The position numbers were made by a program, and so were the translations under genes. A stretch of DNA of 64,000 nucleotides, taken from NCBI RefSeq assembly GCF_947623445.1, contig NC_135243.1:9426501-9490500 (forward strand). Direction: 5' to 3'. The notes under the pieces were generated by a model. The model did no database searches. It was not told where the DNA came from and saw only the letters and a list, made by a program, of their open reading frames with translations. Shown one piece after another: positions 400 to 60,631 of the stretch; the stretch's first letter is position 1, and each line of letters begins with the position of its first letter. Source of the stretch: Clavelina lepadiformis (Eukaryota > Chordata > Ascidiacea > Aplousobranchia > Clavelinidae).

Positions 400-3300
400 A
401 TGCGTGGCCGTATGAAATCGATTTTGCTTCCATTGTTGGTTTACATGATATCAGTATTCGTTTTTAATGAGTTTTTGATTTATTATGTCATCATTTCGAG
501 CTGTGATTGGCCGCATCTGAAAACAACCAAAGAAAATGACACTCCTCTTCGGTATGTATATACTTTATCTTTTTATAGGTTTATATTTAATGCATTTACC
601 TGGGAAAACATTTTATTGATGTTAATTTGATTTTATATGGTTTGTTTGAAAGATTTTTATTGATGCTGATTTTATATGCAGAACAATGGTGCTTGCTGAC
701 CCACATTTATTGGGGGAACAATATGGCCACTGGTTTGACAAACTAAGAAGGTATATAGTAAACTAAGATATTCTTAAAAAATTTTTATTTATTACTTCAG
801 CGTACAAGTTACTTTTTATCAAATTTTTATATTCAGGGAATGGCAGATGTACCGGTCATACCAAACTGCATTACAATTGCTTAACCCAGATGTCGTATTT
901 ATTTTGGGAGATCTTACAGATGAAGGAAAATGGGCGAGCTCTGAGCAATGGAACCGATATGTCCACAGAGTTGGAGAAGTTTTTTTTACTCCCAAAAAAA
1001 TCAGACTTCATGTGGTCGTGGGAAATCATGATGTTGGCTTTCATTATGACATCACACAGAGTAAACTCAATAGGTATTTTAATGTAGAAGATCTTTCTCA
1101 TGTGAATAGGTACCCGTATTACTTCAGTTTTCAAGTATGTACTGGAACCACTAGTGTGGGTATAACAATTACTGATGTTTGAATTTATTAAGTTTCATAT
1201 GTGTTCTGCAAACAACATTTTTAGTATTAAAAGATTACATACCTTTGCAGATTTCTTATATCCTTTCAATCGAAAAATGTTCAAGTATTAAACATACAAG
1301 ACAATGTGTTTGTTCTTGTAAATTCAATGGGTTTAGAAGAAGATGATTGCAACATGTGTGCAGATGTGGAGTCACGTTTGCAATATGTTTCCAGATCACT
1401 GAAATGTTCACAGGTTAAATTTTTTATAATTAGCAGCAGCAGTTATTTTTATGAATGGTGAAGTGAATTTATATGATTAATTTGCATGCGTTATGTAATT
1501 CGAGGCAGTTTGTTGAGAATCGTCATCACTTGAGCTGGTTTTACAATTTCTGTACAAAATTGTTGGAATTAATACACTAGTCCAGGGCTTCCCAAACTGG
1601 GGGTCGCGACCCCGCAAGGGGTCGCGTAACGAACTTCAGGGGTCGCAGAGCGTATACCAATTTTACACGAAGTACAAAATACAATCGAAACAAAATATCG
1701 TTCCAGCCTAATCAACATTGAAACCGCCTTGAGACCAGCATTAACAGATATTGAGCCACGGCTGGACTTGCTTTGTAGCAGAAAGCAGTCGCATCAATCA
1801 CACTGAATAAATGTGTGTGCTTTTTTGTTTCCAGTAGCCTATATATGTGTAAAGTAGTAAGTAGACTTTGAGTACTGGTTGCTTGAATTCAGTCTTTACT
1901 CTTTGCATCTCAATAAATGTCACTAATGACTAATGTATGTTTTGCACTGCTAATTTAATCAATTTAAACGTGAAGGGTCGCGGAAAACTTCAGAAGTTTG
2001 AAAGGGGTCGCGAGCAAAAAAGTTTGGGAAGCCCTGCACTAGTCAACATCCATTAATATGAATTTCTGCATTTTTTGTATTAATTGCAACGGTTTAGTAC
2101 AGCAAAATTGTTTTAATACCCCCCGAGTTATCTTACAGACTCATTCTCTATCATTCAAAATCTGTCAGTTAACTTTAAGCAAGTGCATTGTTTAACTTCA
2201 CATTAAGCAATTCACTTCCAGAAATCTAAACTAATGTACAGTCGAATCCGCTTAATTCGGACACCGGATAACCCGGACAACCGCTTTATTCGGCCAAAAT
2301 GCTCGGGAACGGAACAAAAGTAAAAATTGAACGTAAAAAACTCCCGTTAATTCGGACAATTCTTCGCTTAATTCGGACACAGGTTCGCAATTCCTATCGT
2401 TACATCGTTAGGTTATGAAACAATAAACAGTACTTGGTTGGTTTTAACACGAGATACAGTTGCATTATGAGTGATTATGGTGAAACAATGACGATTAATG
2501 CGGTAACGATCGACAATGAATTCATATAACGCCGTGCCAGCTTCATAGTCGCTTTTACTTCGGTACCATTGCGACCATCTTGTAGAACAGAATGGTACAG
2601 AAAAGTTTAGAAGAAAAAGTGAAATTGCTCACTAAAGTAAACGAAGAAAAAAATGACGACGCTTCCTTGACAGTTCGGCAGTTAGTTGCGTTGGTGGGGA
2701 TATCAAAACGTACTTTGCAAGATTGGCAGAAAAATGATGCAAATCTGCGTGAACAACGTGAAGAGACTATGCTTCGTGGACGAGGTTTAAAGACAGAGAG
2801 GAAGCGGCTCAGAATGTGCGTTTTATGCGTACTCATTTACTCGTACTCTTGTGCGTTTTATGCGATCAGTGCCAATTACTGCAGTATAGCGCAGGTGCAA
2901 TTCATTTATTACGCAACAGTACCGTATTTTAAATGCGTTGTTTGCCTTTACGCATGACCATGAAATGAACAATCGATTTTCCGCTTAATTCGGACAAAGC
3001 CGTTTCTCCGCTTAATTCGGCCAAAAGTGAGCGGAACCAAAGTGTCCGAATTAAGCGGAGTCGACTGTATTTGAAGAGATAGGAATGTACCAATGATGGT
3101 GTTAAAAATATTTATGATATTACATGTGTAATACTTTTCATTTACAATATTTTTTTCAGAATAAAGACGCAGAAAGTGATGAATGCGCAACCCTGCCACA
3201 ATACCCGCCTTATAAGCCAATTCTACTGCAGGTTCAATTAAACAACTCTAATTGTATACATACTGTAGCGCTGCTATTGATATTTGTGACAGTCCTAAAT

Positions 3301-5821
3301 GTTGTTTCCTTGCATGTGAAACATGTACGATTTATAAAAGATATATTAATAACGCAAAGTTTGTCATCACTTGTCTATCTTTTAGCACTTTCCATTGTAT
3401 CGAAGTTCCGATGCATTGTGTCAAGGAGAGGATGCTTCCAGTGGCAAGGAATATGAGAAATATAAGGAGAAATGGGATGTTGTGAGCAGAGATGCATCAA
3501 CGCGGGTGATTTTTATTAACTTACGCAACTTGGCAATTATTAACCAGACTTTTCTTAATTTCAAGGATGGTACAATATTAGAAACCTTATTTTCAGAGTG
3601 AGACTAATGAACAGTTTGTACCGTGCACCAGGGCCGGATTTAGGGGTGCCCCCAACAATTTTTTGTCCAGCTACATTGTGTCACAAATGAGCAAAATTAG
3701 ACCGATGCATAATGCAAAAGTATTCACCAAATTTGAAGTTTTGCCTAAATTGAACCTTTAATTTTCCCAACGTTGAAATTGCATGTTTGTTTCGTTTTAA
3801 TAGTTTCAAACTGCACTGGAAAATGTAATTTTTTAAAACTAGTTGAAAGCCGGCTGCATACGTCGATGACTCAAAAAGCACTTGTTAAGACAAACGTATT
3901 TACGGAGTGGACGTATTTACGTATATATATATATTTAAAAACAGAACATTTTTGCGCTTCGCGAATTTTAACTTGGCAGGCAAGTTCGTGATTTATAAAA
4001 ACGTTGTTAAAGCTTTGTGACTCCCTCCAAAGCAACCCTAAACTGCATGCTACACACTGCAACTACACACAGTTCTATTTGCTCACGCAATATTACAGTG
4101 ATGGTTACTGGTATTTTAATATTTTCACGCTGACCCTGTTATTTTAAGCATATAGGTTTATAAGCATATATATATATATTATATATATAGCATTATAAGC
4201 AATATCAACAGCTGGTTTGTCTAATTAGACTTACAATTAGGTTTTGAAGTTCATAAAGCTAAACTTGGCACATATGCGGTTAAATTATAATTTCATTAAT
4301 GAAAAGGCTCCCACCAATGCTGGACCCCAGTGCACTTCACAATATAAATCCGGCGCTGTAGTGAACAGTAGAATGCTTTGTCCTGTGCTTCGCAATGATT
4401 CCTCATAACTAGATGCACTGAAACCTTGCAAGCCGCTTGTAATGTTTCCAATGACAAAATATAAAAAATCATAAATCAGTTATTCTTTAGGTGATTTGCA
4501 TACACAATATGTCTTTAGAAGTTTATCAATGTACGTACATGTAATCTGTCCAGTGATGGAAACAAGTCTGAATGATCGTGGCACTAGTCAAGTCACTAAC
4601 AGCTCAAGTCGAGTCATTTGATTATATTCCCAAGTTAATTGAAGTCAGCAAGGTTTATCCAGTTCAAGTCTTAATACATGCCAAGCCACCATTTACGATT
4701 TATTTTTCGTTTTAGGTCTAAAATTATAATCAACGGCTTTCTGAATACTCGTGGCGTAATTATAAACATAAAATCTGAATTTATCCATTTCTGACGCCTT
4801 TGCGCATTCAGTAGAATGTGTTGCGTAGTGAATTTTGGATAGATTTTTTTCTCAAATACAGTAAGTTATAAAACCGATTTTACAACGATTTGATACGATT
4901 TGTTCTGGGACTCGAGTCAAGTCAACGGAAATTCCCACGTTAACACGAGACAAGTCGAGTCTTTTAAGCTCTAAAACTCAAGTACATAAACCTCACTCGA
5001 GTCTTTAAGTCGATGGATCTTTCATATATGATTTTAATATATTTAGTGTAAGATTGGCGTACTCCTGTCAAAAGTAAAGATTCATAATACAGTTTAAATT
5101 TATTAACAATTTGTCTGTTGGACAGAAGTCTCGAAATGTTGCATTAACTTAACAAAAGGCAAACAATAAAAGTTTTGCACAAAGCGTTATTGTGATTGTG
5201 GAATACCGCTAACTGTTTTAGTTTCAAACCAAACGATCTTAATTAGCTTCTTACTTTTAAATTCAATATTGTAGAATCAAAGTAACTGAATTGCTAAACG
5301 CAAACCGTCTGCTGCTTTGCTACCGATGGCCAATGTTGTTCATATAGAGCAGAAAGATTAAAGCCTTACGCACGTTGTGTATATTGCTGTTATGGTAAAC
5401 CACTTCACTGTTATGTTGTCTATAATGCGCTAATCTTTTACTATTCTTCAAGTAGATACTACATATGCTTAGACCACGTCTTGCGTTGAGTGGACATACA
5501 CATAACCCTTGCACTTACTACCACGGTGATGGAACGCTTGAAATAACAATACCATCTTTCAGCTGGAGAAATCGAAACGACCCAAGTTTTCTACTTGTAA
5601 GTATTGCAAATTCATGTAGCAGCAAAATAGTGTTTAAAATTGACTTCCACATGTGGTTATGTAACTCACATTTATTGTTGGTATTTTAATAGTTGATGAC
5701 CACACCCAACGACCACGCTGTTTCGCACTGCTACATGCCAACAGAAGGAACCGTTTTGTGCATTTACGTTATTTTCATTGCAGTTGTCTTCTTTAAAATT
5801 TACTGGGTTACACGACACTGA
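400..5821 (+). CDS. Metallophosphoesterase 1 (PGAP5-like), 8 exons, 372 aa
   Basis: Exons 400-551, 682-750, 837-1109, 1251-1413, 3160-3231, 3386-3505, 5456-5596 and 5693-5821 join in phase to a 372-residue protein, close to the roughly 396 residues usual for MPPE1. The calcineurin-like metal-binding blocks are all present in order: DPHLLG (D57, H59), GDLTDEGKW (D99), GNHD (137-139), HFPLY (H244) and GHTH (296-299). The block SFSWRNRN follows GHTH, as in MPPE1. A hydrophobic segment near residues 10-30 and another close to the C-terminus give the two-membrane-pass layout of the family. Known role of the family: removal of an ethanolamine-phosphate side chain from the second mannose of GPI anchors, which allows anchored proteins to leave the ER. 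Exon 3 could read on past its donor, but ending at 1109 restores the frame into exon 4. The ATG at 400 was chosen; the in-frame ATG at 412 is an alternative. Introns 4 and 6 are swollen by transposons. Confidence 0.93.
1583..2036. mobile_element. Non-autonomous hAT element (MITE) in MPPE1 intron 4
   Basis: A 454-bp element starts CAGGGCTTCCCAAACT and ends with the inverted copy. It is flanked by a perfect 8-bp duplication CACTAGTC at 1575-1582 and 2037-2044. An 8-bp target duplication with CAG...CTG ends is the hAT signature. GGGTCGCG motifs repeat near both ends. No transposase is encoded. Confidence 0.9.
2239..3067 (+). mobile_element. pogo/Tigger-type DNA transposon remnant in MPPE1 intron 4
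   Basis: The terminal inverted repeats read CAGTCGAATCCGCTTAATTC on the left and CAGTCGACTCCGCTTAATTC on the complement of the right end. A TA dinucleotide lies on each side, the target of Tc1/mariner/pogo elements. TTAATTCGGAC motifs recur inside both ends. It retains only the DNA-binding start of the transposase, so it cannot move by itself. Confidence 0.88.
2592..2810 (+). pseudogene. N-terminal fragment of a pogo/Tigger transposase (CENP-B-type HTH)
   Basis: The reading frame begins MVQKSLEEKVKLL and continues through VRQLVALVGISKRTLQDW, a helix-turn-helix of the CENP-B/pogo N-terminal type. Similarity to that domain fades after about 70 residues. The frame then runs into unrelated sequence, and no DDE catalytic domain follows before the right inverted repeat. 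The fragment is a decayed, internally deleted transposase inside the element at 2239-3067. Confidence 0.7.
3629..4358. mobile_element. Probable inverted-repeat DNA element in MPPE1 intron 6
   Basis: The left end reads CAGGGCCGGATTTA and the right end, on the complement, CAGCGCCGGATTTA, giving 14-base inverted ends with one mismatch. The flanking octamers (CCGTGCAC and TAGTGAAC) agree at only about five positions, so any target duplication is decayed. No transposase frame is seen. A hAT-like MITE is the likeliest identity. Confidence 0.55.
4555..5020. repeat. GAGTCAAGTC-rich interspersed repeat in MPPE1 intron 6
   Basis: The motif CAAGTCGAGTC and variants recur at both ends (4595-4620 and 4910-5010), on a start resembling CCAGTGATGG. 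Repeats rich in GACTCGAGTC are common DNA-transposon derivatives in animal genomes. Exact ends and duplications could not be set. Confidence 0.4.
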
Positions 5822-6762
5822 GAGATTAGCCACTGTTGGAAATGAAAAGGCTAAACGTGGCGTCCGTAAATGTCAAAGGTCAAATGTCATTGATGTCAAA
5901 CGGAGTAGTCAAATTCCTCGGTAAGAAGAGAGATTCATCAGCCGACAAAGACGATAGCCAAACCAAAGACAGCTATCCAAAATGACAATTTGTGGACACT
6001 GCTTAATAAGACATAGTGACATCATAATTACATCAAATACAACTAGGCAACCTAAACCGTCATAAGATAACGTCATTAAGTCGTAAGTGGGATTACGTCC
6101 CGGAGTAAAAAGAGCTACAACTGTCACTATAAACGAATAAAATGCTCTGGGGTATCAAAAAAGGTTTTGATATAGGCGAACTGTCGGTATAGCCGAAGTC
6201 GATATAGGCGAAGTCTACTGTAGTTGATTTGAGCTTCATTTTTACAATTTCTAGTCGTATTGTGCCTGAATTGCACGTGCGTGTGAAATGTGAATGTAAG
6301 CGTGCAAAGGTAAAAATTGTGTAGTTTGTTAATATCAATTATGTTCAGCTTGTTTTCGTCGGTAGCATTAGTAATTTTACCAATATAACTTTGAAAAGTC
6401 CTCTTCCGGTGCTTCCACTCATTGGCACTTTGAATTGCGTTAACATAGCAGTCAAATAATTGAGGTCAAAGATACTTCTCCATAAAATGTAAGTTAAATA
6501 AATGGTGACGAAGCAAATCCATTTTAACCTCAACATAGGCTTCATTAAATCACTATTCCAGTATCTACTGACATGAAACAAAGAACGAATCAACCAAGCG
6601 AAAAATAAGTAAGTAAATAAATGAAAGACCCCGGCAACCAAATGCACTACATACTGCAGTGCTACGGGCCCCACTACCCTACACTGAGCAGAGAAGCGCC
6701 AGCTGCCTTGGGCAATAAACTATTCGTGGTTGGTCAAGGATGCCACAAATTAACACAGTAAC

Positions 6763-6913
6763 AAACGACCGAATGAAAAGACCTCAATGCAATGAAGCGT
6801 ATACAATATTAATATAATGACGGACACCATGTAACATTTTTGGTTGCACAACGTTGTTCTATTACCGATAGCAAGGAAATGTTAGGATCGCCGCTTGAAA
6901 TAGCTTCCAATCC
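6763..6913 (+). repeat. Dispersed repeat, copy 1
   Basis: About 150 bases, beginning CGACCGAATGAAAAGACCT and ending in GATCGCCGCTTGAAA, match a second copy at 8094-8236 in the same orientation, with scattered substitutions. No reading frame is shared. A MITE or SINE fragment is likely. Confidence 0.7.
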
Positions 6914-8093
6914 AATAAACAAACATCTTCAAATCTGAGCAGTCTGTTTTGTCCGTTATACATGTTAAGCATGTTACGTGCAGAGTCTACTCTATACGAT
7001 TATACGTCCTTGGTGTATGCAGACATCTACATTTAAGAAAATCTACGAAAAAAAGCGTTTTACAAAAAACATTTCGGGTGATAGATTTTCCACTTACAGG
7101 ATCCGAAACAGTGCATGGTAGCCGTCAGTTTGTCACAAATATTTGGACAATTACCTCTTTGTTGGAAACCTTGCACGAGTCACTGAGTTTGTCAACCAAC
7201 CTGCAAGATGTTTCTGCTTCAGAAATTATTATGCGTGCGGCATTGCCTCTGCTTCAGTGGCAACTTCTTCTCTGAAATATTTCAACCCAAACCGTCAGTC
7301 GCACTTGAAAACTTAAACTTAGTGCGAGAAAGTATTCACGGCAATGCTGTTGCAAACAACATATTTGCTTAAGCAGCTCTTAAAGTGAGGGGCAAGCCCA
7401 AAAAAATTGGTCTTAAAGTAAAGAATACTTGCCAGCAAAAATTCCGGAGCTGCAGAAAGAATTTTGTTTAATGTGTAGTTGTTAAACATTTCTTGCTACA
7501 ATTGATGACTGGGTTTTGTATAAGGTATGATAGTAGACCAGCTAAAGCGTTTTGGGTGGAATACATTTCCATAGGTAGGTGATCAATAGCAGGTAATGTG
7601 CATTTTCTGCTTTCATTTTTTGCTGTTCTTTGATTAACTATACTTCTCATTTGCTTAAAATGATGTGTCCATTAACGTCACACGTGGGCTCGTTTTGACC
7701 TGCAGCATGGTGGCGGACACGCGGCACTCAAGTTTCTGGTTAACCCTATTCAAATTTACTCATTTTCAGTAATTACAAAAAATAAACATTAAAGTAGGTC
7801 ATATTCGTTACAAACAAAAAGAAATAGGCAAACAATTTACAATTAGGCTACCAACAATCTAAGCACCGGTTACACAAATCAATTACTACGGCAAATTCAC
7901 AATAACATTTCTGGTCCCGGGCCACTAACCATCTGAAAATGGACGCCGGAAGCAGGAAAATGAAATTGCAAGTTGGCTCGAAATATCCTTCCTTAGTTTG
8001 ACCAAAAGTTTAAAGACATTGAAACTTGTAAACTAGTAAAATAAAACACAAGACCAAGCGATCGTAAGAAGTTATGACTGGTGTTTTGTAATA

Positions 8094-33116: not shown

Positions 33117-37248
<4,132 letters not shown>

Positions 37249-44845: not shown

Positions 44846-44854
44846 GTTCACTTT

Positions 44855-47337
44855 GGCACTGGGTAAAACCTGGACACGACGCAATCCGCGGATCGTCCAT
44901 GGACGGTTGAAAATGGACGATTTTTGCGTAAGCGTCCATGGACGTTTTTACGCAAAACCGACGTTTTCCCTTAGTCGTCCATGGACGGTTGTTGAAATAG
45001 GGTTAAATCAGTTCTTTTTTAACAAAGCGTCCACGGGTGGTTTTTAGGATAAGTTTAAAGCAGTGTTTTCGAGATCGTCCATGGACGGTTGAAAATGGAC
45101 GATTTTTGCGTAAGCGTCCATGGACGATTTTAGGAAAAGCTTAAATAGCGGATAGGGGAAAGCGTCCATGGACGATTTTAGGAAAAGCTTAAATAGCGGA
45201 TAGGGGAAAGCGTCCATGGACGATTTTAGGAAAAGCTTAAATAGCGGATAGGGGAAAGCGTCCATGGACGATTTTAGGAAAAGCTTAAATAGCGGATAGG
45301 GGAAAGCGTCCATGGACGATTTTAGGAAAAGCTTAAATAGCGGATAGGGGAAAGCGTCCATGGACGATTTTAGGAAAAGCTTAAATAGCGGATAGGGGAA
45401 AGCGTCCATGGACGATTTTAGGAAAAGCTTAAATAGCGGATAGGGGAAAGCGTCCATGGACGATTTTAGGAAAAGCTTAAATAGCGGATAGGGGAAAGCG
45501 TCCATGGACGATTTTAGGAAAAGCCAAAATAGCGGATAGGGGAAAGCGTCCATGGACGGTTGTTGAAATAGGCTTAAACCAGTTCTTTTGCACCAAAGCG
45601 TCCATGGGTGGTTTTTAGGATAAGTTTAAAAAGTTTAAAGCAGTCCATGGATGGTTGAAAATGGACGATTTTTGCGTAAGCGTCCATGGACGCCTTTAGG
45701 ACAAGCTGAAATAGCGGATATGATGAAACTGTCCATGGACAGTTATTGGTTTCGAGATCGTCCATGCCCCATGGACACTTAAGAATGGCCGCTTTTTGCG
45801 TAAGCGTACATGGACGATTACAGGATAAGCTGAAATAACGGATATGAGGAAAGTGTCCATGGACAGTTATGGGATAGGCTAAATAGTGGATATGATGTAA
45901 GCGTCCAAGCATGAACAGTTTTGGGGTCATATGCTGAAATGATGGGACATGCAAAGAGTAGACCTCGGTGGGTTTGGGATAGACATAAAAGATAGCCTAT
46001 ATTTTGGAAGCTTGAGTGGTACAATCGGCTGGATAGGCGTAAATTATGGACAGCACCGGGTAAAAGCTTGACACGACACAATCCATAGATCGTCCATGGA
46101 CGGTTGACAGTTTTCAGTAGCCTATAGGCCTAATCATTTCGTGGCATGACCAACTTTTTTAGTGACGGTAGTGTCCATGGACTGTTTTGGGATAGGCTTA
46201 AATAGTGGATATGATGTACCGGTAGTGTCCATGGACAGTTATGGGATAGGCTTAAATAGTGGATATGCTGTACCGGTAGTGTCCATGGACTGTTTTGGGA
46301 TAGGCTTAAATAGTGGATATGATGTACCGGTAGTGTCCATGGACTGTTTTGAGATAGGCTTAAAAAGCGTCCGTGGACGATTTTAGGATAAGCTTAAATA
46401 GCGAATATGATGAAAGGGCACTGGGTAAAACCTGGACACGACGCAATCCGCGGATCGTCCATGGACGGCACTGGGTAAAACCTGGACACGACGCAATCCG
46501 CGGATCGTCCATGGACGGTTGAAAATGGACGATTTTTGCGTAAGCGTCCATGGACGTTTTTACGCAAAACCGACGTTTTCCTTTAATCGTCCATGGACGA
46601 TTGTTGAAATAGGCTTAAATCAGTTCTTTTGCATCAAAGCGTCCATGGGTGGTTTTTAGGATAAGTTTAAAGCAGTGGTTTCGAGATCGTCCATGGACGG
46701 TTGAAAATGGACGATTTTTGCGTAAGCGTCCATGGACGATTTTAGGAAAAGCTTAAATAGCGGATATGAGGAAAGCGTCCATGGACGGTTGTGGGATTAG
46801 GCTTAAAAAGCGTCCATGGACGATTTTAGGATAGGCTTAAATAGCGAGATGATGAAAATGTCCGTGGACAGTTATGGGGTAGGCTTAAATAGTGGATATG
46901 ATGTACCGGTAGTGTCCATGGACTGTTTTGGGGTAGGCTTAAATAGCGAATATGATGAAGTATCCATGGACGGTTATGGGATAGGCTTAAATAGTGGATA
47001 TGATGTAGTGTCCATGGACTGTTTTGGGGTAGGCTTAAATAGTGGATATGATGTACCGGTAGTGTCCGTGGACTGTTTTGGGATAGGCTTAAATAGCGAA
47101 TATGATGAAGTATCCATGGACGGTTATGGGATAGGCTTAAATAGTGGATATCATGAAGTATCCATGGACGGTTATGGGATAGGCTTAAATAGCGAATATG
47201 ATGAAGTATCCATGGACGGTTATGGGATAGGCTTAAATAGTGGATATGATGAAGTATCCATGGACGGTTATGGGATAGGCTTAAATAGTGGATTTGATGA
47301 AGTGTCCATGGACAGTTTTGAGATGGGCTTAAAAAGC
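44855..47337 (+). repeat. Minisatellite array A (left terminal repeat)
   Basis: Tandem units of mostly 48 bases, each with a palindrome such as CGTCCATGGACG. The 45145-45550 block holds about nine near-identical 48-base copies; the 46160-46370 block has 54-base copies with ATGATGTACCGGTAGTGTCC; 46900-47340 mixes 48 and 54. Copies of the terminal motif GGGTAAAACCTGGACACGAC recur at about 46427 and 46476. Because 48 and 54 are multiples of three, long frames stay open on both strands; these are not taken as genes. Confidence 0.92.
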
Positions 47338-49080
47338 ATCCATGGACGATTTTTGTTATAAGATGAGCTGACAGGAGAGAAGTGACCATCATCGTCAATC
47401 CAGTAAAAACTCACTCGGTATTTGAATGTGAACGCGGGGGAGGAACATAATTAATTGGGCGTACAATGGCTATTCTTTCATAATGTAGCACAGGGGATTT
47501 CTCACCCAAGAACAGCGAACTTTCCAGTCTGGGTCTGAATAAAGTCCAATTCCAAAAACTTTTTAAATTATGTGATTAAAGACTTTAACCAAGTTGTTTT
47601 CATCATCACTCAAGCTTAATGTGTTAAATTGTACATATTTTACTATAACTGTGAGCAGGGTAACACTTAATCTCGATTTTATTTCTTCATATTTTGCTTA
47701 AAATTGAATATATTCACTTTCGCGTCAAACACAAAAATTTGTATTAATCCATTTATTCTTTTTTGCAGGTGCTGCAAAAATATTCCTGCGACAAATACTG
47801 TATTAATGGTACACAATTCTGATGAACCCATCGACAACAAAGACTGCATTCAATCTGAAAAAACAATATAGACAATTAAATCCTGTAAAGTGATCTCTTA
47901 AGCAAAGAGGTGAACAGACAGCACTTTTCGTGTAAAAGATGCTGCAGCAAATGCAATATTTGCTGCGGTAAAGGTTACTTGTTCGCAATTTTGCTTGACA
48001 CTTCTAGATTAAAAAAGATCAACAGATGCTACAATTGGTATTAAGGAGTATTAACATGTGTTTTTTGAACATAAACTTGTTAAATTTTAACTAATCACAC
48101 GAAAAGTACTGATTACCGGGACTGACTGTAATTTCTTGAAAAAAGTAATTCGGTACTATAGTACCGCAGTACTGCCCACATATGCTTGAGCATGGTATAG
48201 GTGTTCTATAAAGTTAAAACAACCTATCAAAAAAACACAAGTCATTAACTTAGTTTTTTCATAAGTGTTTTGGAACCACGAGTGCAAAATTAAAACAACT
48301 AGAATTTTAAAAGTGATTTTAAATTTTCTAGTTGTGTTTGAGTTAAGTAATTTTTATGTACGTTTTTTATGTACACAATTTTTGGTTGTAGAACAGGAAT
48401 TATACAAAAATAAAACTATGCACTGCTGGACCTGTGTGCTCGTAGACATTTATTATCTGAATGTAGAAACATAGAGTAACATCTGAAACAAATGAGCAAA
48501 CTTTGTGCATGGCTTGTGTTCGATACTCAGTTGCAATGCATTAACGACGCTAGGTCTTTTTATTTAAACTGGCAAAAAGTTTGAAATTTGGGCAATATGA
48601 TGCCCAGTTCGAAATAGTTTCACTACAGTGGTAAAATAGTTGCAACTTATAATACCTACTAAACTGTATGCAATGATGGTTAAATCTGCCTAAGTTAATA
48701 TATTATATGATGAACAAGGTTTACCCATTCTGTCTTTTGCTGGTCAATTTCAGATGGGTCTTGATTGTGGCATATATTGCAAAAACTCAACAATACATCA
48801 TAGTCTGCAAAATGAAATAAATCTATCTGCATTTTTACATTAAAATACTTTGTTGTGAAAACAGAAGTATACAGTTTTTAAAAATATTTAGTTAACAAAT
48901 TCAAGACCAACAATGTGCCAGTTACAAATACAACAACGAACAAAATAGTTAATCTGTTTAAAGTCAGGTTAAAAATGTTGGTGGTTTTCCTATAAATATC
49001 TTTTACATTAACTTTATACATAAGTATGGTTTAGTGCTCTTCTGGAAAATTATGTGGTATACTTCAACGACCTTAAACAA
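47338..49080 (-). repeat. Left arm of the 1.7-kb internal inverted repeat
   Basis: This arm matches 51031-52890 on the opposite strand over its whole length, with substitutions and small indels. Shared blocks include GTTCACATTCAAATACTGAG / CTCGGTATTTGAATGTGAAC near the outer ends and the PHD exons inside. The inner end falls at the ACGACCTT block near 49070, next to array B. Confidence 0.88.
47753..48805 (-). CDS. 3' end of a PHD-finger gene, intact copy (partial)
   Basis: Two minus-strand exons, 48805-48726 (80 bases) and 47854-47753 (102 bases, ending TAA), have GT-AG junctions. Joined, they encode a C4HC3 PHD finger at the very C-terminus: YDVLLSFCNICHNQDPSEID, then TEWIECSLCCRWVHQNC, then EYFCSTCKKE. 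Spacing is C-x2-C-x17-C-x2-C-x4-H-x2-C-x12-C-x2-C. PHD fingers bind histone tails in chromatin proteins and also occur at the ends of some transposon proteins. The upstream exon present in the right-hand copy (50856-50973) is absent because array B begins there. The copy is therefore 5'-truncated, though its finger frame is clean. It probably derives from a transposon-encoded protein. Confidence 0.65.
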
Positions 49081-50410
49081 ACCTGGACACGACGACGGAC
49101 ACGAAACCTGGACACGACGTAAAACCTGGACACGACGCAATCCGCGGATCGTCCATGGACGGTTGAAAATGGACGATTTTTGCGTAAGCGTCCATGGACG
49201 TTTTTACGCAAAACCGACGTTTTCCCTTAGTCGTCCATGGACGGTTGTTGAAATAGGGTTAAATCAGTTCTTTTTTAACAAAGCGTCCACGGGTGGTTTT
49301 TAGGATAAGTTTAAAGCAGTGTTTTCGAGATCGTCCATGGACGGTTGAAAATGGACGATTTTTGCGTAAGCGTCCATGGACGCTTTTACGCAAAACCGAC
49401 GTTTTCCTTTAATCGTCCATGGACGATTGTTGAAATAGGCTTAAATCAGTTCTTTTGCATCAAAGCGTCCATGGGTGGTTTTTAGGATAAGTTTAAAGCA
49501 GTGTTTTCGAGATCGTCCATGGACGGTTGAAAATGGACGATTTTTGCGTAAGCGTCCATGGACGATTTTAGGAAAAGCTTAAATAGCGGATATGAGGAAA
49601 GCGTCCATGGACGGTTGTGGGATAGGCTTAAATAGTGGATATGATGTACCGGTAGTGTCCATGGACTGTTTTGGGATAGGCTTAAATAGTGGATATGATG
49701 TACCGGTAGTGTCCATGGACTGTTTTGGGATAGGCTTAAATAGCGAATATGATGAAGTATCCATGGACGGTTATGGGATAGGCTTAAATAGTGGATATCA
49801 TGAAGTATCCATGGACGGTTATGGGATAGGCTTAAATAGTGGATATGATGAAGTATCCATGGACGGTTATGGGATAGGCTTAAATATTGGATATGATGAA
49901 GTATCTATGGACAGTTATGGGATAGGTTTAAATAGCGAATATGATGAAGTATCCATGGACGGTTATAGGATAGGCTTAAATAGTGGATATGATGAAGTAT
50001 CTATGGACAGTTATGGGATAGGCTTAAATAGTGGATATGATGAAGTATCCATGGACTGTTTTGAGATAGGCTTAAAAAACGTCCATGGACGATTTTAGGA
50101 AAAGCTTAAATAGCGAATATGATGAAAGTGTCCATGGAAAGTTATGGGATAGGCTTAAATAGTGGATATGATGTCAGCATCCAGCAAGCATGGACAGTTT
50201 TGGGGTGATATGCAGAAATGATGGGACATGCAAAGACGTCCATGGGTTTTGGGATAGACTTAAATGATGTATTTTGGATTAATGTCCATTTAAGGGTTTT
50301 GGGATCTAGGTTTAAAATTAAATGATGGATATACGGTTTTGGGTTAGGCTAAAGTGATACAGTTATAGGCATCTATAAGCTGGACACGACACAATCCATG
50401 GACTGTTGAA
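49081..50410 (+). repeat. Minisatellite array B (internal)
   Basis: The array has the same orientation as array A and begins with the terminal sequence ACCTGGACACGACGCAATCC, here preceded by two extra CTGGACACGAC units. It then follows the same order of subfamilies as array A: GTTGAAAATGGACG units first, then GTACCGGTAGTGTCC 54-mers, then GATGAAGTATCC 48-mers. It ends in degenerate units near 50400. It looks like a second copy of a left terminal repeat. Confidence 0.9.
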
Positions 50411-50855
50411 AATTTTGAGTAATTATTTCATGGCATGACCAACTTTTTTATTTATGTGTCTTTACTGTAAATTGTTGTTATTATTCTGATTTAGATATAA
50501 CATTACTGATCTCAATACATATTTTTCTGATATTGTAAGTGTATTTTAGATCATTTTTACGTGCTAATGGCAAATGTTTTCGTGGCACTTGGGATAAATG
50601 GATGTTTCAGCATAGAAAACATGAAAGGCAACAAGACATTTTGAATTGTGGCCTACTGGCTTTAAAGGTATTTTTAGAAAGGATGAATTCAAATTTGTGA
50701 AGATTAAGTATATAATCACTATTATTATTAGTATATATTATTATCACTAATTTATAATAATAAATAAAAATTTATAATTTATATAATAAATAATAATTTA
50801 TAATAATAAATAAAAATAAAAAATAGCTTTTCTATCAATAAGTGGCATATTGCAG
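50411..50855. other. AT-rich spacer inside the 9-kb element
   Basis: Contains an AT microsatellite-like tract of TAATAAATAAAA type at about 50706-50826. No exon is recognised. The lost 5' part of the PHD-finger gene would be expected here. Confidence 0.4.
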
Positions 50856-52477
50856 GAAGCTCAAAGAATCCTTAATGAAAGTTCTTGCGAGAAACAGATC
50901 GATTTCGATACTGACAGCGAGTCCTGCAAAAAGTATCGCATGGACTTTGGCAATTTACTGCTTGATTCCATCGGTGAGAGGCTGTTTGGGTTTGAATTAG
51001 AACTGCAGTATTTGTAACATGTTATGACCTGGTTGTTGTTCAAGGTCGTTGAACTATACCACGTATATTTCCAGAAGAGCACTAAACCATACTTATGTAC
51101 AAAGTTAAGGTAAAATAGATTTATATGAAAACGACCAACATTTTTAACCTGACTTTAAACAGATTAACTATTTTGTTCATTGTTGTATTTGTATCTGGCA
51201 CATTGTTGGTCTTGAATTTGTTAACTAAATATTTTTAAAAACTGTATACTTCTGTTATTTTGTTTCTGTTTTCACAACAAATGATTTTAATGTAAAAATG
51301 CAGATAGATTTGTTTCATTTTGCAGACTATGATGTATTGCTGAGCTTTTGCAATATATATGCCACAATCAAGGCCCGTCTGAAGTTGACCAGCAAAAGAC
51401 AGAATGGGTAAACCTTGCTCATCATATAATACATTAACTTGGCAGATTTAACCATCATTGCATACAGTTTAGTTGGTATTATAAGTTGCAACTATATTAC
51501 CCGTGTAGTGAAACTATTTCGAACTGGGCAGCGGCAGATATCAGATTTTGGGGAAGTTTGTTTTCAGTTTTACTGTGGTCTAGCCCAAATTTTGAACTAT
51601 TTACTTTTAGCTTGATACTTCAACACGACCATGATGATCTCTATCGCCGGTTCTTCGCATGACTTAAACCTGGCTCTGATTCCAAATCATTCAATCCCCT
51701 GTTTAGAAAGCTAGCCTTTGTGCAATTTTTTTTGTGACATATTTTTTATTGGTTTTTACATCATATTGCCCAAATTTCAAACTTTTTTCCAGTTTAAATA
51801 AACAGACCTAGCGTCGTTAATGCATTGCAACTGAGTATCAAACACAAGCCATGCACAAAGTTTGCTCATTTGTTTCAGATGTTACTCTATGTTTCTACAT
51901 TCAGATAAATGTCTACGAGCACACAGGTCCAGCAGTGCATAGTTTTATTTTTGTATAATTCCTATTCTACAACCAAAAAACCATACATACATAAAAATTA
52001 CTTAACTCAAACACAACTAGAAAATTTAAAATCACTTTTAAAATTCTAGGTGTTTTAATTTTGCACTCGTGGTTCCAAAATACTTTTTTCAAGGAATTAC
52101 AGTCAGTCCCGGTACTCCGTACTTTTCGTGTGATTAGTTAAAATTTTAACAAGTATATGTTTAAAAAACACATGTTAATTACTCCTTAATAGCAATTGTA
52201 GCATCTGTTGATCTTTTTTAATCTAGAAGTGTCAAGCAAAATTGTGAACAAGTAACCTTTACCACGGCAAATATTGCATTTACTGCATCATCGTTTACAC
52301 GAAAAGTGCTGTCTGTCCACCTCTTTGCATAAGAGATCACTTCACAAGATTTAATTGTCTATATTGTTTTTTCAGATTGAATGCAGTCTTTGTTGTCGAT
52401 GGGTTCATCAGAATTGTGTCCCAGTGATACAGCATATGTCGCAGGAATATTTTTGCAGCACCTGCAAAAAAGAATAA
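50856..52477 (+). pseudogene. 3' end of the PHD-finger gene, frameshifted copy
   Basis: Three plus-strand exons are seen. 50856-50973 encodes EAQRILNESSCEKQIDFDTD, then SCKKYRMDFGNLLLDSI. 51326-51407 is the first half of the finger. 52376-52477 is the second half, ending at TAA. Junctions are GT-AG, and phase 1 joins exon one to two. The middle exon has two extra bases (TA, in TGCAATATATATGCC near 51355) compared with the minus-strand copy; this breaks the frame between the first and second cysteine. The last exon stays intact and differs mostly by H/Y, M/L and V/L changes. No catalytic domain lies upstream within the element. The host protein of this finger is unknown to me. Confidence 0.65.
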
Positions 52478-52890
52478 AAGGATTAATACAAATTTTTGTG
52501 TTTGACGCAGAAGTGAATATAATCAATTTTAAGCAATACATGAAGAAATGAAATCGAGATTAGGTGTTACGCTGCTCACAGTTATAGTAAAATATGTACA
52601 ATTTAACACATTAAGCTTGAGTGATGATGAAAACAACTTAGTTAAAGTCTTCAATCACATAATTTAAAAAGTTTTTGGAATTGGACTATATTCAGACCCA
52701 GATTGGAAAGTTTGCTGTTCTTGGGTGAGAAATCCCCTCTGCAACATTATGAAAGAATAGTCATTATATGCCCAATTAATTTTATTCCTCCCCCGCGTTC
52801 ACATTCAAATACTGAGTGAGTTTTTACTGGATGGACGATGATGGTCACTTCTCTCCTGTCAACTCATCTTATAACAAAATTTGTCCATGG
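51031..52890 (+). repeat. Right arm of the 1.7-kb internal inverted repeat
   Basis: Inverted match to 47338-49080. It runs from TCAAGGTCGTTGAACTATAC near 51041 to CTCATCTTATAACAAAATTT near 52880. About 100 bases longer than the left arm because of indels, for example near 51530-51740. Confidence 0.88.
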
Positions 52891-53865
52891 ATGCTTTTTA
52901 AGCCCCTCCCAAAACAGTCCATGGACACTTTATCAAATCCACTATTTCAGCCTATGCCATAACTTTCCATGGACACTTTCCTCATATCCGCTATTTAAGC
53001 TTCTCCTGCAATCGTCCATGGACGCTGACACAAAAATCGTCCATTTTCAACCGTCCATGGACGATCCGCGAATTGCGTCGTGTCCAGGTTTTACCCAGTC
53101 CCGTTTTTTAAGCCTATCTCAAATCAGTCCATGGACACTACATCATATCCACTATTTAAGCTTATCCCATAACTGTCCATGGACACTTTCATCATATTCG
53201 CTATTTAAGCTTATCCTAAAATCGTCCATGGACGTTTTTTAAGCCCATTTCAAAACAGTCCATGGACACTACATCATATCCACTATTTAAGCCTATCCCA
53301 TAATTGTCCATGGACACTTTCATCATATTCGCTATTTAAGCTTATCCTAAAATCGTCCATTGACGCTTTCCCCTATCCGCTATTTAAGCTTTTCCTAAAA
53401 TTGTCCATGGACGCTTTCCTCTATCCGCTATTTAAGCTTTTCCTAAAATCGTCCATGGACGCTTTCCCCTATCCGCTATTTAAGCTTTTCCTAAAATCGT
53501 CCATGGACGCTTTCCCCTATCCGCTATTTAAGCTTTTCCTAAAATCGTCCATGGACACTTTCCCCTATCCGCTATTTAAGCTTTTCCTAAAATCGTCCAT
53601 GGACGCTTACGCAAAAATCGTCCATTTTCAACCGTCCATAGACGATCTCGAAAACACTGCTTTAAACTTATCCTAAAAACCACCCGTGGACGCTTTGTTA
53701 AAAAAGAACTGATTTAACCCTATTTCAACAACCGTCCATGGACGACTAAGGGAAAACGTCGGTTTTGCGTAAAAACGTCCATGGACGCTTACGCAAAAAT
53801 CGTCCATTTTCAACCGTCCATGGACGATCCGCGGATTGCGTCGTGTCCAGGTTTTACCCAGTCCC
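52860..53865 (-). repeat. Minisatellite array C (right terminal repeat)
   Basis: Units of the same family in reverse orientation to arrays A and B. It contains an internal terminal-like block near 53060-53105 and five or six near-identical 48-base copies at 53340-53600. The last 260 or so bases are almost a perfect inverse of the first bases of array A. It is shorter than array A (about 1.0 against 2.5 kb) through loss or gain of units. Confidence 0.92.
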
Positions 53866-53874
53866 GTTCACTTT

Positions 53875-54443: not shown

Positions 54444-57400
54444 ATGGCATTTCAAAGCACTCAGCATTTTGTTCGACTGTCACTCTTCAGGAGTCGCAAG
54501 CTTTCCAGGCTCGGGTAAGTATATTAAATGTAAGAAAATTTATGTCTAATCTAGTTTCCTTTCTTAGAAATATCTAAACTGGATTATAATTTGCTATTAA
54601 TTTGCAATGTAAATATGAAACATAAACCAACAATATTATGTTAAAATTGTCAGATGTATATGTCATAGATCAAGCAATGTTATGGATTGTCAAAAGGTTA
54701 TCCGATTTATGTCCACTGAGCTCAGCAGTCAGTTTGAGATGGCAAAAGCAAAATTGAACACTTTGAAAAATGAACCTGGCAATGATGTTAAGCTGAAGAT
54801 CTATGCTCTTTTTAAGCAGGTGTTGGGAAGTTTTTTGACTATGTGCTCAGTTTCTGTTGTGAAGTGCTGTTTAGAAAATAACTTTTTCTGATTATTTTAC
54901 AGGCTACGCTTGGTGAAAATACGACAAAAAAACCAGGTGCCTTTAATTTTGTAGGGCAAGCTAAATGGAGTGCTTGGCATGAGCTTAAAAAGATGTCAAT
55001 GGTATACTTTTTCACTATTTTCATTTCTTTTCATTAGTATTGATCATTAGTTCACTAGCATTGTTATTATCTTTTTGTTGTAGACCAAAAAATAAGTATG
55101 CTGATATCCAATGAAGTAGCTGATTACCTTTCATAAAAAATTCTTTGTTGCAAGCTTTTACCTAAGGTTTCTTGTGAAATTCTTCGGCCTTTAAGTTAAA
55201 AAAATGCTAAATGTTTAATGAAAAGCTAATAAAATGACTTCTTTCTGCTTAGCATCAAGAAAAGTAGTTGCTGACAAAAAGAAATTAACAAAAAAACATA
55301 TTTTTAAACATTGATTTATTGAGTACAAATAATGGCCAAATCGCTAATATATTTCACCATAAACAATATAGCTCTAAGCAAGAGGTTTACTTTGACTACA
55401 ATACATAAGTTTTAACACTACATATACTGCACTGCCCAAGTGGTCTGTTTCAAACAATAGGCCAACATTGATTATTACATTGTTATTTTCATTGTTGTAC
55501 TCCATTGTTATTTTCAGTATAGATTGCATTCTTTCAGAAATCTGGTCATGATCCTCAGTAAAATGAGCAATATGCACACAAGACTCATAACATACCAAAC
55601 ACAAAGTTTCCGAAATCAAGAATATAGTTTAAAAGCAACGTGGTACCTTTTCAACCCTCAGTCAAAGTGACCGAATTGATAAAAATATTTTGAGACAAAC
55701 TAAGCACACAACTCAAAATCAAATATAAGCTCTTGTTTTAGAAAGAAACACATTAACGTTTTCTAACACATTGTTATTGAAAATAAGCACAAATCTTAAG
55801 AAATAAGCTGGAAATGGTAACCCTGTATATATATATGACATTCTTTCTTTATTCTAAAAGGCCTAAAGTATGTTGATCTAGCCTTGGCTGGTCACCAGAT
55901 ACTAACTTAAGAATGTGAATTTCAGGATGATGCAAAGCAAGAATATGTTAATGTGATAGAGAAATTAGCTGCTGCTGAAGGATTGGAGGAGACACCAACA
56001 CAGGAACCATCAACTGAAACTCAACAGAAATACGAAAATTTGTTTGTAACAAAAGAGAATGCAGTCACCAGAATTGTTTTGAATCGGCCACACAAGAAAA
56101 ATGCTTTAACCAGAGAAGTAGATTAAAAATGATGTCAGTTTTTTTAATTGCATTTTATTACTTTATTTTATTACTTGCAGATGTATGAAGAGATTATTGC
56201 TGCATTAAATGAAGCTGCCAATGATAATAGTGCTGTAACAATAATCACTGGAGCTGGAGATTTTTTCTGCAGTGGAAATGATCTGGGAAATTTCATGTCA
56301 ATCTCTCCAGACAAAATGCAAGAAATTGCCGTCGAGTCTGGCGATCTTTTAAGGTTTGCAAAGTTTTGCATAAGCATACACAACACTTATAATATTAATT
56401 CTCAATCATTAGGCCATGATTCAATACTCAAAATTAGATATATATATATATATATTAGGGATGGGCCGATACGAACCCAAACCCGAGTAGATTCGCCGAA
56501 TATCGCCTTTGTGGAAGATTCGGGCGAACACGAATACCAACAATGGCGAACCCGAATACAATATTACTTACAAATTTACTGACTTTTGTTAAAAAGGATA
56601 ATCTAGTTTCCCGACAAAGCTAAACTAGAGTCAACAATACTTAAAATGAAGGTCGTTTTACTAACGATTTTGCTTTTTCAATCGTTTTTAAACACTATTT
56701 TTCGAAAGAAAGCGATTTGTTTATCGATTACGTCATTTTAGAAACAAGACTTGACAACTTTTGGAGGAAATTTTATTGTTTGGTTCTAATATGAATAGAT
56801 TCAAGATTCGTTCGTACCGACCTTCATGATATTCGGGTTCGCACGAACCCGAATAATCTTCCTCGCGGCACATCCCTAATATATATACATATCCAGTGAA
56901 TACCATTGTTTATTTGCAGGACTCTGCAGGTAATATCAGTGCTGGTCATTGTTACATCATAATTGAAAATACATTACAATAGAAGTTAGAAATAAACTGA
57001 ATGAGGAAATTTAACACTGTTTATTTATCCAAATAGTTCTGTTTAGCAGTATTTCTCTTGTGTCTATTGTTTATTTTAAGGTGCATTCTTCTTGTCTTTT
57101 GTAGTAGTTTAGTATTAGAAACCTCATAAGAAAAATAATACACCAGGTATCACACTCGTTATTTTTTGATGTAATATATGAAGAAAATTGAAAAACCTTG
57201 AGAACAATGAATATGTAAATTAAGTGCACAGATTTAATATCTATTACAAATTAACGCGCAGTGATGGTAGAAGCATTCTCACACTGGCATATACTGCAGA
57301 CTGGTATAAGTTCTGAAAATTTTGCTTTAAAACATTTTTGCTTTATTAAATCTGTTTGCTCCTGCTTATTGATTTTGCAGACCATGTTGATGCTCTTGAT

Positions 57401-59560: not shown

Positions 59561-59713
59561 GCTATTACTCAAGAAGATAGTGTACTGTGTCATTCTTAAT
59601 GAAACTTGTACTGTACTTTTTACGACGTTTGAGAAAACTATGCAAACAGTCGTTTTACATTTGCAAGATATTTGAGACAAACTTTTTAAAAACGTCGTTG
59701 AAAAAACAGCAAA

Positions 59714-60631
59714 ATGGCATGCGGATCGCCGCCATTAGATTTATCTGTCAAATCGGATAAAAAAATTCCAAGAGTTCCTGTACAACCATGTGCTGTGCAA
59801 GACCAGCATGTTCTAATTAAGTCATTGGACTTACCTCCTAGATTACAAATTCCACCGACCGGATCCGAATGCAAGGAAGGCAGTATTGGTCCCACAACCA
59901 AAGCTAATTCCGATGAAGAAGGAAAAACTAGTTCCTCTGAAAATGGTGGGCGAAGAAATAGAACTGCGTTCACTCGATTTCAAACAAGCATACTGGAGAA
60001 AGAATTTTTAAAGGATAACTACCTATCAAGGGCGAGGAGAATAGATTTGTCTTTGGAGTTGAACCTCATGGAAAGCACGATTAAGGTGAAAAATAGCTTT
60101 AGATTAAAAATTAGTTTTATTTTTATAAGTTATTGGTGTGTATTCGAATACAAATTTTAAATCTAAAAGATAATAACTTAAGCCTATTACCTATAAACGT
60201 ACGTAGCTATAAAGTTTATATACTTAAATAATGATTTACTTTGTCGGGAGAGGTATGGTTTCAAAACAGAAGAATGAAAGAAAAACGACAAAGAGTATCT
60301 ATGTTGTTATGGCAACGCCCTCCAAGTTGTGTATTTCCACCTTATTCTTTTTTGCCGTTTCCTCAGCACCAAGGATTTTTCGGTGATAACATACCTGGTA
60401 TATTATACATTTCTTTTCTTTCAAAGTTTTTCAAACCTTTTTTAAATTAAATTATTTATATTATCCTCAGCGAACATTTCAAGGCAAAGAACTCATCCGG
60501 CTGCGTCCATAACTCTTCATCAAACCAACTATCAGCAACAAGCTAGTCCAATTCCACGTGTTCCATCGTACAATCTAAGACCAACATATTTACCCTTTTC
60601 TGCAACGCAAACTTCGCGAAACAATATTTAA
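59714..60631 (+). CDS. Even-skipped-class homeobox protein (Evx), 3 exons, 225 aa
   Basis: Exons 59714-60085, 60253-60397 and 60471-60631 join in frame to 225 residues, much shorter than vertebrate Evx proteins (about 400). The homeodomain spans about 79-138: [20 protein letters not shown], then [18 protein letters not shown], then [17 protein letters not shown]. The block NYxSRxRR, LNLxExTIK, the ending KEKRQR and a following tryptophan (MLLW) match the Evx/eve class rather than Hox or Gbx. The intron between K and V of TIK/VWFQNR sits at homeodomain position 46/47, shared by several homeobox families including Evx. The N-terminus begins [11 protein letters not shown]; the tail is rich in proline, glutamine and tyrosine. 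The known role of the class is transcriptional control in posterior and neural patterning. Substitutions in usually fixed positions show fast evolution. Confidence 0.88.

What the first reader, a model, noticed from the sequence alone, without database searches (positions are those of the whole stretch)
44855..53865. A 9-kb fold-back transposon with minisatellite-built inverted ends and a PHD-finger cargo
Seen: a perfect 9-bp duplication GTTCACTTT on both sides, 16-base termini with one mismatch, and inverted ends hundreds of bases long built of a GTCCATGGAC minisatellite. Inside lie two inverted copies of the 3' end of a PHD-finger gene. Known: Foldback elements and relatives of Mutator show long inverted ends of short tandem repeats and 9-bp duplications. 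Inference: this is a non-autonomous, rearranged member of such a family, and the autonomous parent encodes a transposase ending in a PHD finger.
Basis: partly seen in the sequence, partly recalled or inferred. Interest (0 to 1): 0.92.

Follow-up and report, generated by a model that had tools for sequence, protein, structure and literature searches.

The report
Sea-squirt fold-back Mutator transposon, scrambled copy
A 9-kb jumping gene in a sea-squirt genome is a scrambled copy, without its own cutting enzyme, of a family whose likely enzyme gene lies elsewhere in the same genome; it is a real transposon of a known general type, in an animal group where such elements are rarely reported.

Summary
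The 9,011-bp element (44855-53865) has a perfect 9-bp duplication, 540-bp outer arms 99% complementary, and 61 copies of GTCCATGGAC (0.01 expected). The genome holds 111 terminus-like sites, none for the reversed control. Of 15 fetched copies with both ends, 10 have perfect 9-bp duplications, each a different word; 5 have none. For two other copies, paralogous empty sites carry the target once. A likely parent exists on the same chromosome: an 885-codon open frame with a MULE domain and D-D-E, followed on the same strand by four exons that read in one frame to a PHD finger. The exons between were not modelled, and one annotated isoform stops before the PHD. Most short copies, the window included, lack about 4.1 kb with the transposase exons but keep the PHD end, so the PHD sequence is the transposase gene's tail, not cargo. 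The window copy is a private composite of an inverted half of one derivative and most of another. Closest known kind: Rehavkus, outgroup or early branch of Mutator, reported from arthropods and annelids; membership by sequence could not be tested. New member of a known kind.

The parts
44846..44854 (+). target-site duplication GTTCACTTT, left copy
44855..46416 (+). left arm: terminus GGCACTGGGTAAAACC and GTCCATGGAC minisatellite; 45073-46367 matches the left arm of L009 (92.5%) and 45448-46412 that of L019 (96%)
45112..45558 (.). array of 9.3 units of 48 bp, 99% alike
46417..46466 (+). extra 50-bp copy of an element terminus, at a composite junction
46467..49080 (-). partial B-type deletion derivative, inverted, beginning exactly at its terminal base and cut inside
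48725..48804 (-). exon Y (first half of PHD finger) of the B-type copy, frame intact
47753..47854 (-). exon Z (second half of PHD finger and stop) of the B-type copy, frame intact
49081..49118 (+). filler made of repeated pieces of the terminus; a 48-base pattern over this junction was found once in the genome
49119..53865 (+). nearly complete A-type deletion derivative (alignment to L009 starts at base 9 of the terminus)
50523..50525 (+). deletion junction: about 4.1 kb with the transposase exons is missing here compared with L028
50550..50667 (+). exon W (NCG motif) of the A-type copy
50856..50973 (+). exon X of the A-type copy
51326..51407 (+). exon Y of the A-type copy, with a 2-bp insertion shared by L009, L010, L011 and L019
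52376..52477 (+). [not shown]
52881..53865 (-). right arm: minisatellite, an internal terminus copy ending at 53102, and the outer terminus
53866..53874 (+). target-site duplication GTTCACTTT, right copy

Best explanation
The element is a non-autonomous, internally rearranged member of a cut-and-paste DNA transposon family of the Mutator (MULE) superfamily, Rehavkus-like, in a genome inferred to be Clavelina lepadiformis. A longer relative encodes a transposase with a CG-1-like N-terminal region, a MULE DDE core, a SWIM-like zinc motif and, most likely, a C-terminal PHD finger. Its ends are long inverted arms of a GTCCATGGAC minisatellite. Loss of about 4.1 kb with the transposase exons gave short elements that keep both arms and the PHD exons; these are moved in trans and leave 9-bp duplications. 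The window copy joins a left arm, an inverted half of one short element and most of another. Shown: the family, its ends, the duplications, empty sites for two other copies, a MULE gene within a family member, the deletion. Inferred: splicing of the MULE exon to the PHD exons, movement in trans by this transposase, arms as arrays of binding sites, and repair with template switching as the origin of the composite.
For: Same ends elsewhere: 85 matches, 40 of 125 candidates scored; 57 + 54 terminus sites with up to 3 mismatches, 0 + 0 in the reversed control. Perfect 9-bp duplications in 10 of 15 complete pairs. Empty sites: 28 rows span the join of the L010 flanks and 12 that of the L019 flanks, of 40 rows scored among 1,497 candidates; four were read in letters. 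Transposase: open frame of 885 codons in L028, PF10551 3.8e-8, 34.1 bits, cut-off 27.6; D453, D518, E632 and C539 with H542 invariant with three homologues; one uninterrupted copy among 16 matches, 19 of 19 candidates scored. PHD: PF00628 25.5 bits on the joined exons Y and Z; exons W, X, Y and Z have AG and GT borders and read in one frame. Homologues with a MULE region and a C-terminal PHD in Ruditapes P0011 and Mytilus P0019. Deletion: window 50380-50523 matches L028 1320-1480 and 50525 on matches 5603 on, in reverse-complement coordinates. Composite junction found once in the genome.
Against: Five of 15 complete pairs lack a 9-bp duplication (L014, L015, L017, L018, L022; L014 and L015 share flanks). 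The annotated protein of the L028 locus, P0001 (894 aa, isoform X1), leaves the frame before the SWIM-like motif and ends without a PHD finger; no transcript was seen here. The L028 element lacks about 90 bp of its left terminus and shows no duplication in the fetched stretch, so no complete autonomous copy was seen. The C48 protease of some homologues is not detected by Pfam in the Clavelina exons; pairwise BLAST of the 138-residue tail against P0021 and P0011 aligned only the PHD part with any weight, and weakly (E 0.025 and 0.010). The SWIM motif and the DDE assignment are my reading of conserved columns. No empty site was found for the window's own insertion. Trans-mobilisation was not tested.
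Confidence: 0.9

Rival explanations
1. A Pack-MULE or fold-back element that captured the 3' end of a host PHD-finger gene as cargo.
For: The window copies carry only terminal exons with introns, as captured gene pieces do; the annotated isoform X1 of the L028 locus does not include them.
Against: In L028 the same exons lie downstream of the MULE exon on the same strand, and bivalve proteins P0011 and P0019 end in a PHD finger after a MULE region. The matches to the 3' exon regions (52 rows with 40 of 576 candidates scored; 44 rows with 39 of 39) were not all read; those lying in fetched loci belong to this family.
Confidence: 0.06
2. A segmental inverted duplication or satellite array, not a transposon.
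For: Long arrays and inverted copies; some loci share flanks (L014 with L015; L018, L020, L023 and L025).
Against: Ten different 9-bp target duplications at exact ends and empty sites with one target.
Confidence: 0.01
3. The composite arose by insertion of one element into another with later deletion, rather than by repair with template switching.
For: The B-type copy starts exactly at its terminal base at 46467, as an insertion would.
Against: Its far end is missing, so no pair of duplications can be checked, and the filler at 49081-49118 of repeated terminus pieces fits faulty repair synthesis.
Confidence: 0.35

Closest known systems
Rehavkus (Repbase; known here through PMC6446971, passages and section 8, and PMC10218199, passages)
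   Same: 9-bp duplications, PHD finger in the transposase, minisatellite before the 3' inverted repeat; Rehavkus-1_TC is 9.5 kb with tandem 164-bp units in its inverted termini.
   Different: Reported hosts are Arthropoda and Annelida; the unit here is about 48 bp around GTCCATGGAC; direct sequence comparison was not possible.
Tm1 Mutator/Foldback elements of Meloidogyne (PMC3169594, abstract and passages)
   Same: Composite inverted ends of short tandem repeats; 45 of 53 elements with 8-10 bp, mostly 9-bp, duplications; a single element with a MULE-like transposase in the passage read.
   Different: Phantom-type transposase with a FLYWCH finger; repeat unit about 14 bp; no PHD finger in the passages read.
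Foldback element Tetris of Drosophila virilis (PMC4079207, passages)
   Same: Long inverted ends with internal tandem repeats, 8-10 bp duplications, rearranged copies.
   Different: No transposase was found for Tetris; unit about 220 bp.
MULE-type proteins of bivalves (Ruditapes P0011, Mytilus P0019, Pinctada P0022)
   Same: P0011 and P0019 have a MULE region and end in a PHD finger; P0011 passes the cut-offs for CG-1, MULE, C48 and PHD.
   Different: The MULE scores of P0019 and P0022 lie under the cut-off; C48 is found in P0011 and P0022 but not in the Clavelina exons; the DNA ends of these genes were not examined.

Membership tests
Mutator (MULE) superfamily | DDE transposase with MULE domain in a family member | tested here: met
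   L028, PF10551 34.1 bits, cut-off 27.6; D453, D518, E632 invariant with P0002, P0004 and P0005
Mutator (MULE) superfamily | 8-11 bp, mostly 9 bp, target-site duplications | tested here: met
   10 of 15 complete pairs perfect at 9 bp, 5 of 15 without; empty sites for L010 and L019
Mutator (MULE) superfamily | terminal inverted repeats | tested here: met
   540 nt, 99% complementary in the window
Rehavkus | 9-bp target-site duplication | tested here: met
   10 of 15 complete pairs
Rehavkus | PHD finger in the transposase | tested here: inconclusive
   PHD exons lie downstream of the MULE exon on the same strand and form a PHD finger (25.5 bits; 22.9 in the longer peptide), but the splicing between is not shown and the annotated isoform P0001 lacks it
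Rehavkus | minisatellite before the 3' inverted repeat | tested here: met
Rehavkus | transposase groups with known Rehavkus proteins | not testable with these tools
   Repbase sequences are not held; the rows listed by three protein searches name no Tribolium protein (most rows are unnamed)
Phantom | N-terminal FLYWCH zinc finger | tested here: not met
   Pfam scans of the two L028 frames and of P0001 list CG-1, MULE, Transposase_mut and one weak CinA_KH match, no FLYWCH
Foldback (as a shape) | long inverted ends built of short tandem repeats | tested here: met
Foldback (Drosophila FB/NOF lineage) | transposase related to NOF | not tested
   no NOF sequence was compared

The most novel reading that the evidence does not exclude
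A whole swarm of PHD-ended Mutator deletion derivatives in a chordate is driven, or was driven until recently, by a single transposase gene that has lost one of its own ends and so can no longer leave its site: an immobilised helper on the way to being a resident gene, while some derivatives keep intact PHD exons that might make a short regulatory protein.
Probability: 0.2. Interest if true: 0.65.

Novelty: new member of a known kind. Interest (0 to 1): 0.5.

Why it matters
A 2019 survey of MULEs reports limited evidence for them in chordates, one Ciona savignyi sequence excepted (its table also names Tunicata under Phantom), and places Rehavkus only in arthropods and annelids (PMC6446971, passages and section 8). 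A Rehavkus-like family with its likely transposase gene, its deletion derivatives and empty sites in a tunicate would widen that range and tie a fold-back shape to a definite transposase. One intact gene with many derivatives makes trans-mobilisation, and the role of a PHD finger in a transposase, directly testable.

Tried and rejected
An integrase-like frame in L010 (rva_4) was first taken as the possible transposase. The genome search put full-length frames of 96% identity or more at eleven other places, nine without stops, so I read it as a nested, unrelated element; its insertion borders were not mapped. A Mutator domain of another Pfam family (PF20700) in L020 lies in a tandem 3.6-kb block in the right arm and was set aside as another MULE. 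The older relatives L029 and L030 were fetched in the hope of a full parent; they have the terminus, and the whole-genome transposase search lists no match there. L031 was fetched to extend L020 to the left and used only for exon Z. A C48 protease in the Clavelina gene rests on one NCG motif; Pfam does not see it. A sequence search of solved structures with P0002 matched four sequences, all at its PHD finger. The third protein search, aimed at arthropod relatives, returned five mite proteins and one unnamed protein. Age of the insertion and selection on the PHD exons were not computed. Structure prediction was not used. In this second version the confidence of the best explanation went from 0.92 to 0.90, and that of the cargo rival from 0.04 to 0.06, because the annotated isoform of the transposase locus ends before the PHD exons, which the first version left out; the Rehavkus PHD row was changed to inconclusive for the same reason.
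Full report
What was checked. The window is C4:9426501-9490500 of a genome of 209,060,895 bases in 95 contigs. The lengths of contigs 1-9 (28.78, 26.53, 25.73, 25.07, 24.62, 20.77, 20.45, 19.51 and 15.73 Mb) match the chromosome table of Clavelina lepadiformis within about 0.01 Mb (PMC10884593, passages). The published assembly is given as 210.1 Mb in 102 scaffolds, so the totals differ slightly. The species is inferred from lengths; the protein of the transposase locus is also named as Clavelina lepadiformis by its source.

The element. GTCCATGGAC occurs 61 times in the window, all within the element; the largest number in 100 shuffles was 1.

The family. A search with the first 251 bases gave 85 matches with 40 of 125 candidates scored. 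A 28-base pattern with up to 3 mismatches gave 57 forward and 54 reverse sites and none for the reversed control; not all 111 places are listed, and since arms often hold internal copies of the terminus this is not a copy number. Twenty loci were fetched. Fourteen of them, and the window, had both ends within reach; six (L020, L023, L025, L026, L027, L028) had one. Ten of these 15 pairs have a perfect 9-bp duplication, each with its own word; L014, L015, L017, L018 and L022 do not, and L014 and L015 share their flanks. The chance of even one perfect 9-mer in 15 random pairs is about 6 in 100,000 (own arithmetic, equal base frequencies).

Empty sites. The flanks of eight copies that have duplications, of ten such copies, were joined with one target each and searched together; 40 of 1,497 candidates were scored. 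Twenty-eight rows span the join of L010 and twelve span that of L019; some rows of L010 differ from the query by a few bases in length. Four were read in letters: three hold the exact 9-mer at the join, one with a single change. L010 and L019 thus sit in repeats whose other copies lack the element. The window's flanks gave no such row.

Deletion derivatives. Window bases 50380-50523 match L028 (reverse complement) 1320-1480, just before the first coding exon, and 50525 onward matches from 5603, just before exon W. Fourteen of the 20 loci align without a break across this point (L009, L010, L011, L013-L017, L019, L021, L022, L024, L026, L027). Of the other six, L028 is broken there, L012, L018 and L020 do not cover it, and L023 and L025 show no inner match in the fetched stretch. 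So most short copies probably stem from one deletion. L029 and L030 have the terminus but a different inner start.

Two types. Inner sequences of L009, L010, L011 and L019, and in part L012, are closest to the window's A part (97-98%); those of L013, L014, L015, L016, L021, L022 and L024 are mostly 97-99% alike to the window's B part; L017, L027 and L028 lie between. The A copies L009, L010, L011, L019 and the window have a 2-bp insertion in exon Y, which breaks their PHD finger; exon Y is open in the seven B copies and in the window's B part. Exon Z has a stop in L013, L027 and L031.

The composite. From left to right the window holds a left arm (44855-46416), a 50-bp terminus copy, an inverted partial B-type element that begins at its terminal base (46467-49080), a filler of repeated terminus pieces (49081-49118), and an A-type element that lacks about 8 terminal bases (49119-53865). 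A 48-base pattern over the filler junction, with up to 3 mismatches, occurs once in the genome. The outer duplication is intact, so the outer ends belong to one insertion. Faulty repair synthesis with template switching after excision is my preferred origin; it is an inference.

Placement. The first protein search gave 8 proteins and the second 123, of which 120 are listed, most unnamed. The named ones are from Clavelina, Ruditapes, Mytilus, Pinctada, Crassostrea, Mercenaria and Hydra, a mite (Halotydeus), and one bacterial bin, Candidatus Thiodiazotropha, which I take to be stray host DNA. Of six proteins scanned, P0011 passes the cut-offs for CG-1, MULE, C48 and PHD. In print, Rehavkus is described by 9-bp duplications, a PHD finger and a minisatellite, in arthropods and annelids (PMC6446971, passages and section 8), and Rehavkus-1_TC as 9.5 kb with satellite units in its inverted termini (PMC10218199, passages). 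The word Rehavkus is in 8 papers of the library; I read passages of five (PMC6446971, PMC13359780, PMC10218199, PMC4438587, PMC4298943) and only the listing of three. A search for foldback, transposon, ascidian and inverted repeat together found none, and the ten titles listed of 171 for tunicate MULE terms show nothing on this family. Subscription journals and Repbase were not searched, so a Repbase entry for this very family cannot be excluded.

Verdict. The finding is a new member of a known kind, of fair interest because such elements are rarely reported in chordates and because the chain from likely parent gene to scrambled derivative is visible in one genome.

Noticed in passing
L020 (C1:2947400-2957314) 700-7600: A tandemly doubled 3.6-kb block with PF20700 Mutator frames on one strand and an HNH/homing-endonuclease-like frame (PF05551 2.6e-11; PADLOC HEase 5.3e-5) on the other, beside the right arm of a copy of this family.
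   Followed up: partly
L010:5842-6636 (-): An rva_4 integrase-like frame, full length at 96% or more at eleven other genome places, within a copy of this family.
   Followed up: partly
L027:2229-4138 (-): A 636-codon open frame with DDE_1, HTH_Tnp_Tc5 and CENP-B_N domains (pogo/Tigger-like) between pieces of a copy of this family.
   Followed up: no
C9:12408761-12408927 and C9:12421003-12421169: Two pairs of facing termini that span only 167 bp each, which look like miniature elements of the family.
   Followed up: no
C4:0.4-3.4 Mb: A repeat that served as target for L010: 26 of the 28 rows found by one search lie on this part of C4, two on C1.
   Followed up: no
C1, loci L018, L020, L023, L025: Copies with nearly the same outer flank at different places, which suggests duplicated blocks on C1.
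   Followed up: no
window 56148-56582, 59702-60160, 35255-35626, 778-1182: Host exons: enoyl-CoA hydratase/isomerase, homeodomain, S-adenosylhomocysteine hydrolase and calcineurin-like phosphoesterase; the nearest of these starts about 2.3 kb to the right of the element.
   Followed up: no
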